From Citrus sinensis (Eukaryota > Streptophyta > Magnoliopsida > Sapindales > Rutaceae): 64,000 nucleotides of DNA. The DNA lies in assembly GCF_022201045.2 (NCBI RefSeq), contig NC_068561.1, positions 12,487,001-12,551,000 of the forward strand, read 5' to 3'. The position numbers and the translations under genes are program-made. Shown here one piece after another: positions 47,530 to 48,932 of this stretch. The notes under the pieces were generated by a model. The model saw only the letters and a list, made by a program, of their open reading frames with translations. It did not search any database and had not been told where the DNA came from. The number at the start of each line of letters is the position of its first letter. Position 1 is the stretch's first letter.

Positions 47530-47728
47530 GGGTTATTTTTAGGGACCTCCCCTGAGGTTTAGTGTATTAACAGTTGGATAGAAAGTATTCATGTAATTTC
47601 AAAGACCTCCCCTAACGTTAATACAAAAATACGTATAACGTTACTATAAAGGGTAAATACGTAAAAATAAATTTAAAATTTAAACAAAAACAAAATTCAA
47701 ACAAATACAAAGACAACTGAACGGAATA

Positions 47729-48489
47729 ATGGCAGCCCCTTCTCCACGGGAAGAAAACGTATACATGGCAAAACTTGCGGAGCAAGCCGAGTGGTACGAG
47801 GAGATGGTCCAATACATGGAAAAAGTCATCGTCTCTGCCTCGACCAGCGAGGAACCTCCTCTCCGTTGCCTACAAGAACGTCATCGGCGCACGGCGTGCC
47901 TCCTGGTGCATCGTGTCCTCCATCGAGCATTAGGACGAGTCGCACGGCAACCAGGACCATGTCTCCGTGATTAAGGAGTACAGATCGAAGATCGAAGCCG
48001 AGTTGACGGAGATTTGTGGCGGGATCTTGAAATTATTGGACCAGAAATTGGTTCCCACCGCTCTCGCTGCCGATTCCAAGGTGTTTTATTTAAAGGTGAA
48101 GGGTGATTATCTACTCAGGTTTAAGATTGTCTGCTTGCTTGATTGCCCTTGCGTCTCCTCTCTGTTTTTGTTTTTTGAGTCTTTTTCCTTTTGGCCTTTT
48201 CCTCTTTTGTTTTATTTTTTTCACCTCTTTTTGGAAGTTTCTCGTCACTCTCCTCTCATGGCTGTTGCGTTTACACCAAAAATACTTCATAACTTGATAT
48301 CATTTTAGATTCCAAAACTCATCACTCACGCGCTCCCAAAAAATAAATTGATTCTCAATTCTGTTTTTTTCCTTTCTAAATTCTAATTTTGGTTTTGACA
48401 TGAGTTTGCTTAACTTGGCTGAGTTTAAGACTGGTGATGAGAGGAAAGTCGCCGTTGAGAATACTCTTAATGCCTATAAATTTGCTCAG
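47729..48489 (+). pseudogene. Captured 14-3-3 (GF14) gene fragment
   Basis: Exon 1 begins MAAPSPREENVYMAKLAEQAEWYEEMVQ, the standard start of a plant 14-3-3 protein. After STSEE a small deletion shifts the frame; the sequence resumes as RNLLSVAYKNVIGARRASW, reaches a TAG where a Gln is usual (about 47933), then reads VIKEYRSKIEAELTEICGG to FYLKVKGDY (about 48100). An intron-like stretch follows, and exon 2 (about 48405-48489) reads LAEFKTGDERKVAVENTL up to a GT donor. Only the first part of the roughly 250-residue protein is present. The breaks rule out a working 14-3-3 protein, though transcription is possible. Confidence 0.9.
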
Positions 48490-48657
48490 GTTTAATCTAT
48501 TTGCACTACGATTATTTATTTTTTTATTACTTTGAAATGTGGAGTATTTGTTGTTTTGTGTTTTAAAATTATTTTAGATGCTGCATTATCCATTTTCTTT
48601 AAGCATGTTTGATCTAAAATTTTGTTTGGTAAGGATGGGCTTATATACCGTGACTAA

Positions 48658-48732
48658 GAACAAAGGATAAAAAATGAATGCAGAACAAAGGATAAAAAAT
48701 GAATGCAGAACAAAGGATCATAAATGAATGCT
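48658..48732. repeat. Three tandem 25-bp units inside the Pack-MULE
   Basis: Units of GAACAAAGGATAAAAAATGA plus GTGCA-like ends start at 48658, 48683 and 48708. The first two are identical and the third differs at three places. They lie between the 14-3-3 fragment and the right inverted end. Confidence 0.85.
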
Positions 48733-48932
48733 AATAAGGCTACGTTAAGAGCGTAACCTCCTCTATGTTAAAAATATATTTTTACGGCAAGGGCATTTTT
48801 GGAATTTCAATAGTCAACTGACGGTCCACTTAACGAAATACTAACGTCAGGGGAGGTCCCTGTAATTATATGAATACTTTCTATCCAACTGTCAATACAC
48901 TAAACCTCAGGGGAGGTTTCTAAAAATAACCC

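What the first reader, a model, noticed from the sequence alone, without database searches (positions are those of the whole stretch)
47530..48932. Pack-MULE that captured a 14-3-3 gene with its intron
Seen: long inverted ends sharing CCTCCCCTGAGGTTTAGTG, a 10-bp flanking duplication with one mismatch, and between them exon 1, intron and exon 2 of a 14-3-3 gene. The retained intron argues for DNA-level capture rather than a reverse-transcribed copy. The captured reading frame has a frameshift and a TAG, so it is not a working protein. Inference: if transcribed, it could yield small RNAs against 14-3-3 genes.
Basis: partly seen in the sequence, partly recalled or inferred. Interest (0 to 1): 0.8.

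Follow-up and report, generated by a model that had tools for sequence, protein, structure and literature searches.

The report
Pack-MULE with nested 14-3-3 capture
In what looks like the sweet orange genome, a small transposon has copied part of a 14-3-3 gene between its ends, and a later repair put a piece of another chromosome into that copied exon; the inserted piece looks like an intron but is not the gene's own.

Summary
The element is real: 1,403 bp, 94-bp inverted ends (90%), a 10-bp target duplication with one mismatch, a same-ended partner with an open transposase frame, and a fragment of one identifiable 14-3-3 gene (GF14 omega, C8:13.4156 Mb). The "intron" at 48119-48404 is not a 14-3-3 intron: the donor has none there. 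Most of it is DNA with one other match in the genome, C9:1.572 Mb (91%), placed inside captured exon 1. DNA-level capture still holds, because part of the donor's true intron 1 follows at 48490-48751. Six further two-ended copies share the left capture junction; in three sub-lineages the 14-3-3 part is interrupted by different DNA (C9 non-coding; apyrase; SMAX1-like plus a repeat). Shared junctions, including a filler copied from the captured exon, point to one primary capture by template-switching repair. No copy keeps the captured exon open from its own start codon. Most novel reading not excluded: the repair built a new intron, its 5' splice site copied from the gene's own intron 1; a lime protein record (P0206) reads exactly across it. 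No RNA evidence was available. Otherwise a well-resolved member of a known kind.

The parts
47520..47529 (.). left copy of the 10-bp target site duplication (ATCAGAGTTA)
48933..48942 (.). right copy of the target site duplication (ATCAAAGTTA, one mismatch)
47530..47623 (+). left terminal inverted repeat (94 nt, 90% complementary to the right one)
48839..48932 (-). right terminal inverted repeat
47530..47705 (+). MULE 5' end, 90-91% identical to the 5.3-kb MULEs L040 and L041
47699..47705 (+). left capture junction: AAACAAA shared by MULE and donor 5'UTR; same place in all 7 two-ended copies, with a few extra bases in this copy and in L028
47706..47728 (+). captured 5'UTR remnant of the donor 14-3-3 gene
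47729..48111 (+). captured 14-3-3 exon 1, first piece (frameshift by a 20-bp deletion at 47852/47853, TAG at 47931-47933)
48112..48124 (+). 13-nt filler TACTCAGGTTTAA, 12 of 13 identical to the donor's exon 1 / intron 1 boundary; carries a CAG|GTTTAA splice-donor-like site
48147..48417 (+). second captured piece, from non-coding DNA at C9:1572018-1572272 (91%); boundaries beyond the blast match 48154-48401 read by eye; a 28-bp internal deletion; ends in ACTTG shared with the donor exon
48119..48404 (+). candidate capture-built intron (286 bp, GT..AG, 46.5% T, frame-keeping); leaving it out gives the residues that a lime protein record (P0206) has there
48413..48489 (+). captured 14-3-3 exon 1, second piece
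48490..48751 (+). captured 5' part of the donor's true intron 1 (donor L033 4096-4307)
48657..48731 (+). 25-bp unit in three tandem copies within the captured intron 1; single in the donor
   Evidence: donor sequence
48752..48764 (+). right capture junction filler, 13 nt matching the captured exon (L033 3751-3763; one change here), also in L026-L028
48765..48932 (+). MULE 3' end; the part 48771-48932 is 87% identical to L040 and L041

Best explanation
A non-autonomous Mutator-like element (Pack-MULE), probably of sweet orange. Step 1: during repair of a gap inside a MULE, synthesis switched at AAACAAA into the GF14 omega gene on C8, copied the end of its 5'UTR, exon 1 and 212 bp of intron 1 (about 730 bp), made a short 13-nt back-copy from exon 1, and returned to the MULE 3' end. 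Step 2: the product was moved by transposase supplied by same-TIR elements and became a small family. Step 3: in separate copies a break in the captured DNA was patched with DNA from unrelated loci: C9 non-coding DNA (window), an apyrase gene on C3 (L026-L028), a SMAX1-like gene on C4 plus a repeat (L029-L031). Shown: the pieces, their donors, shared junctions, TSDs of 5 of the 7 copies, broken frames. Inferred: the repair mechanism, mobilisation in trans, the order of steps. Any effect on the donor through small RNAs is possible and untested.
For: TIR and TSD. Same-TIR 5.3-kb elements L040 and L041, 99% identical; L041 has an 812-codon frame with MULE, MuDR-type and SWIM domains. Donor L033: four exons that join into one open 14-3-3 frame; its exon-1 protein is 100% identical to part of a record named GF14 omega, Citrus sinensis, on a contig of 30,582,302 bp, the length of C8. 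Left junction at the same place in 7 of 7 two-ended copies. Right junction with exon-derived filler in the window and L026-L028, 4 of 4 copies that keep that end of the capture: 13 of 13 in L026 and L027, 12 of 13 in L028 and the window; 0 of 1,500 random window 13-mers match the captured segment 13 of 13, 7 match 12 or more (the length 13 was chosen after seeing the match). Second donors: C9 91%, C3 apyrase 92%, C4 97%. Short shared bases at several joints: AAACAAA, ACTTG, CTT.
Against: A tree of the terminal 298 columns does not unite the three sub-lineages or even L026-L028, so single origin rests on the shared junctions. Two of the 7 copies have no good TSD (L031 9, L026 4 mismatches of 10). 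I see no clear shared bases at the left apyrase joint. About 22 bases (48125-48146) have no assigned source. The three later insertions might not be independent. L029-L031 lack the right side of the 14-3-3 segment, so only the left junction ties them to the others. A partial eighth copy, L032, has a different left joint.
Confidence: 0.88

Rival explanations
1. One reading: one capture of exon 1, its intron and exon 2 of a 14-3-3 gene.
For: GT..AG ends and a frame-keeping junction make 48119-48404 look like an intron.
Against: The donor and two other 14-3-3 loci have no intron there; the stretch matches C9:1.572 Mb and no other place was reported.
Confidence: 0.03
2. A capture-built new intron: template switching placed a copy of the donor gene's own splice donor next to U-rich foreign DNA, so the insertion is spliced out when the element is transcribed. 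(An addition to the best explanation, not an alternative to it.)
For: Filler TACTCAGGTTTAA is 12/13 identical to the donor exon 1 / intron 1 boundary (7 of 1,500 random 13-mers match the captured segment as well). Lime protein P0206 reads DYLLSLLNLAEF across exactly this junction, and shares 5 of 16 comparable changes with the window copy against 0-2 of 11-12 for each of the other six copies.
Against: No RNA seen. P0206 may be an ab initio model and its DNA was not seen. 3,369 of 20,000 random inserts would offer a frame-keeping GT..AG near both edges. The acceptor GAG|T is not a strong one (recalled). The window copy is frameshifted upstream anyway.
Confidence: 0.25
3. The insertion is a nested small transposon in the captured exon.
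For: It interrupts the exon nearly cleanly (6 bp of donor between the matches).
Against: Only one other match in the genome; shared bases and local filler at the joints, no inverted ends or duplication seen.
Confidence: 0.04
4. Each sub-lineage captured the 14-3-3 gene independently.
For: The end-sequence tree does not unite them, and the donor is closer to the copies than copies of different sub-lineages are to one another.
Against: Left junction at the same place in 7 of 7 and the same filler-bearing right junction in 4 of 4 that keep it.
Confidence: 0.06

Closest known systems
Pack-MULEs of rice and other plants (Jiang et al. 2004, recalled; passages of PMC13317346 and PMC4858842 read)
   Same: Non-autonomous MULE with TIRs and TSD, host gene fragment inside, multi-donor chimeras, copies at several sites
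   Different: Here donors and a likely order of acquisition can be read at base level, with three different later insertions into one captured gene segment
Pack-TIRs, gap filling and FoSTeST (PMC8277862, passages read)
   Same: Template switching at microhomology, filler at a breakpoint, multicopy spread
   Different: That is a study of animals; here a second round of filling inside the captured DNA
CitMule of clementine (PMC4334395, passages read)
   Same: Citrus Mutator-like element with transposase, A+T-rich targets
   Different: CitMule is 6.9 kb with short degenerate TIRs and 9-bp TSDs; this family has TIRs of about 94 bp, 10-bp TSDs and 5.3-kb transposase-bearing members
[quoted passage not shown]
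   Same: Foreign DNA put into an exon by repair and usable as a GT..AG intron
   Different: Here inside a transposon-borne gene copy, splice donor apparently copied from the same gene; splicing not shown

Membership tests
Pack-MULE | long terminal inverted repeats | tested here: met
   94 nt, 90%
Pack-MULE | 9-11 bp target site duplication | tested here: met
   10 bp, one mismatch. Of 18 same-TIR elements tabulated, 15 have at most one mismatch at 10 bp as delimited; of the 7 with 14-3-3, 5
Pack-MULE | ends shared with a MULE encoding a MULE transposase | tested here: met
   L041: PF10551 and PF03108; L040's frame is split in two
Pack-MULE | host gene fragment, no transposase inside | tested here: met
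   14-3-3 donor L033; the element matches L041 only at its ends; interior accounted for by the 14-3-3 gene and C9 DNA except about 22 bases
Pack-MULE | mobility of this copy | not testable with these tools
   5 of 7 related copies at different sites with TSDs imply past movement of the family
Intron gain by break repair | foreign DNA in an exon with GT..AG ends, absent from the donor gene | tested here: met
   3,369 of 20,000 random inserts would also offer such ends
Intron gain by break repair | the stretch is spliced from RNA | not testable with these tools
   only a protein record from lime (P0206)
Processed retrocopy | introns removed | tested here: not met
   donor intron 1 sequence retained at 48490-48751

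The most novel reading that the evidence does not exclude
Repair inside a transposon-borne gene copy built a new spliceosomal intron in one event: polymerase jumped about 77 bases ahead and copied the gene's own splice donor, then copied a U-rich stretch of another chromosome, then returned to the exon in frame. In lime a record of the captured gene reads 166 residues across this new intron. If transcripts are spliced there, the birth of an intron is visible with nearly every template named.
Probability: 0.25. Interest if true: 0.68.

Novelty: new member of a known kind. Interest (0 to 1): 0.45.

Why it matters
How Pack-MULEs pick up genes is debated. Here donors, junction fillers and a likely order of acquisition can be read in one small family, which supports repeated template-switching repair. 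It also warns that an insertion in a captured exon can pass for an intron, for readers and perhaps gene finders: one sweet orange protein record (P0093) and one lime record (P0206) appear to be such elements annotated as 14-3-3 proteins. If the insertion is spliced, it is a traceable intron birth.

Tried and rejected
Retained 14-3-3 intron: rejected. Processed copy: rejected, intron 1 sequence present. Nested transposon as the insert: rejected, two places only. Selection for a protein: from the captured start codon the frames end after 81 (window, shifted), 37, 11, 39, 8, 8 and 8 codons, so no Ka/Ks was attempted. Against a flat 'all broken': partial open stretches over 14-3-3 sequence remain, such as 117 codons from an internal Met in L027 and 154 codons without a stop in L031; one search prints open frames of up to 219 for L029 and L030 where one search finds 99. 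For P0206 only the protein is known (19 of 162 aligned residues differ from the donor, 3 of them at the insertion). Mutation spectrum against the donor in four copies (window, L026-L028): C>T or G>A in 79 of 121 substitutions, consistent with methylation of the copies but not polarised, so only suggestive. Tree of the ends: 22 rows, unresolved for the question. Whole-genome family search for PF00244: not completed, so the list of 14-3-3 loci comes from DNA and protein similarity. PDB and NCBIfam searches for the C4 donor gave nothing, nor did Pfam; its SMAX1-like identity rests on similar proteins, one named SMAX1-LIKE 3 (44% identity), others Clp-like or unnamed. L067 was fetched and not analysed.

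Papers. Searches: Pack-MULE with citrus 17 papers, with template switching 4, with 14-3-3 0, with acquisition and break terms 9, with intron gain 4; citrus MULE terms 10 and 5; citrus 14-3-3 family 95, 12 listed; intron gain and repair 26, 12 listed. Passages read of PMC8277862, PMC13317346, PMC4334395, PMC4858842, PMC7826509 and PMC3443670; none was read whole; the rest were seen as listings.

Full report
The element spans 47530-48932. Its ends are inverted repeats of 94 nt, 90% complementary, each with a second, weaker copy (77%) of a 26-nt CCTCCCCT-type motif 60 bp away. It is flanked by ATCAGAGTTA / ATCAAAGTTA. These observations hold. The window lies at G000:C6:12487001-12551000 of a 300-Mb genome in 11 contigs. 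The genome is probably sweet orange: the donor's exon-1 protein occurs, at 100% identity, in a record named Citrus sinensis on a contig of 30,582,302 bp, which is the length of C8.

Family. The same ends occur at many places (95 matches from 40 scored of 453 candidates, a lower bound). Two 5.3-kb members, L040 and L041, are 99% identical; L041 has one frame of 812 codons with MULE transposase, MuDR-type DNA-binding and SWIM domains, while L040's frame is split into 657 and 167 codons. L042 is similar in length and 97-98% identical. Of 18 elements tabulated, 15 have a 10-bp duplication with at most one mismatch as I delimited them; the exceptions are L026, L031 and L044. L044's duplication becomes exact if its left end is moved by one base (by eye).

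Donor. L033 (C8:13412000-13420000) holds four exons that join into one open 14-3-3 frame (an off-by-one was corrected there). Exon 1 scores 201.7 bits to PF00244. The window carries donor exon 1 in two pieces and 212 donor bases of intron 1, which fill 262 bases here because of a tandem triplication. Excluding gaps, 384 of 414 aligned sites agree in the left piece, the joint included; the right piece, mostly intron, is 93.7% identical over 269 columns.

The 'intron'. In L033 the blast matches on either side of the window's 'intron' end at 4012 and resume at 4019; in L035 and L037 they are adjacent too; L036 and L038 match the first piece only. So the gene has no intron there. The window stretch 48095-48440 has one other reported match in the genome, C9:1572018-1572272, 91%. 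That locus lies about 3.4 kb downstream of a reticulon-like frame; on its own strand I found no frame of 60 codons over it, on the other strand one of 93 codons. At the right joint C9 and the exon share ACTTG; at the left joint stands TACTCAGGTTTAA, 12 of 13 identical to the donor's own exon 1 / intron 1 boundary; 7 of 1,500 random window 13-mers match the captured segment as well. About 22 bases remain without source.

Other copies. Seven elements with both ends contain the 14-3-3 piece. An eighth, L032, carries part of it with a different left joint, and no right end was found in the fetched stretch. L026-L028 leave the gene at L033 3967, run through about 950 bp of an apyrase gene (GDA1/CD39, C3:40.22 Mb), and re-enter intron 1 near 4262-4268. 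L029-L031 lack about 120-145 bases of the donor after 3629, leave at 4022 into a SMAX1-like gene (C4:9.92 Mb; 97%) and continue in a repeat found elsewhere. All seven have the left junction at the same place, with a few extra bases in the window and L028. The window and L026-L028 share the right junction, where GTTAAGAG of donor intron 1 runs into a filler that matches exon 1 (13 of 13 in L026 and L027, 12 of 13 in L028 and the window). That is the main evidence for one primary capture. A tree of the ends does not confirm it.

How it probably works. Gap repair with template switching explains shared bases at several joints, short local fillers and unlinked donors. Published work describes such gap filling for Pack-TIRs with microhomology at breakpoints (PMC8277862, passages) and multiple parental sequences in MULE-derived genes (PMC4858842, passages). 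The step added here is repeated filling within already captured DNA. The mechanism is inferred.

Function. No two-ended copy keeps the captured exon open from its own start codon; partial frames remain in some. Perfect 21-mers shared with donor 5'UTR+exon 1: window 111 of 496, other copies 56-102. With four other 14-3-3 loci (L035-L038) the window shares none, L026 5, L028 9, L031 6 and 3. So small RNAs, if any, would bear on GF14 omega above all. A review reports captured sequences in maize as siRNA reservoirs (PMC13317346, passage).

Possible new intron. The stretch 48119-48404 begins GT, ends AG, is 286 bp and 46.5% T, and leaving it out gives the local frame ...KVKGDYLLSLLNLAEFKTG.... A lime protein record, P0206 (166 aa), has the same unusual DYLLSLLNLAEF and ends ...SAQV, as reading from exon 1 into donor intron 1 would give. 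Of its 19 differences from the donor, 16 can be compared with the window copy and 5 are shared; the other copies share 0 of 12, 2 of 12, 1 of 12, 0 of 11, 0 of 11 and 1 of 11. So the lime gene is probably the same sub-lineage, perhaps the same insertion; only the protein was seen. Against it: 3,369 of 20,000 random inserts would offer a frame-keeping GT..AG, and the lime model may be a prediction. I give splicing 0.25.

Annotation. P0093, a Citrus sinensis protein (CISIN_1g045057mg), matches C7:28527725-28528879 in four pieces at 90-100% identity: upstream flank, 14-3-3, SMAX1-like, repeat, which is the L031 copy and its flank. In a published survey of nine C. sinensis 14-3-3 genes the word pseudogene does not occur in the main text (term search only, PMC7826509).

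Verdict. An ordinary kind of object, unusually well resolved, with one open and testable novelty.

Noticed in passing
L031 (C7:28527300-28529900): A Citrus sinensis protein record (P0093, CISIN_1g045057mg) appears to be this Pack-MULE copy plus its upstream flank annotated as a 14-3-3 protein; this copy has no recognisable TSD.
   Followed up: partly
window 44208-46247 (-): 679-codon ABC transporter frame (ABC_tran and ABC2_membrane); the Pack-MULE sits about 1.28 kb upstream of its first ATG.
   Followed up: partly
window 48657-48731: A 25-bp unit of captured intron 1 is present three times here and once in the donor.
   Followed up: partly
window 12097-14759: Integrase and reverse transcriptase (RVT_2) frames of a retrotransposon, Copia-like by recall.
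   Followed up: no
window 28639-31062 (-): 807-codon subtilase frame.
   Followed up: no
L032 (C8:17232500-17237000): Eighth place with part of the 14-3-3 piece beside the same left end; different left joint, no right end found in the fetched stretch.
   Followed up: partly
window 47530-47623 and 48839-48932: Each end holds two copies of a 26-nt CCTCCCCT-type motif 60 bp apart, possibly two transposase binding sites.
   Followed up: no
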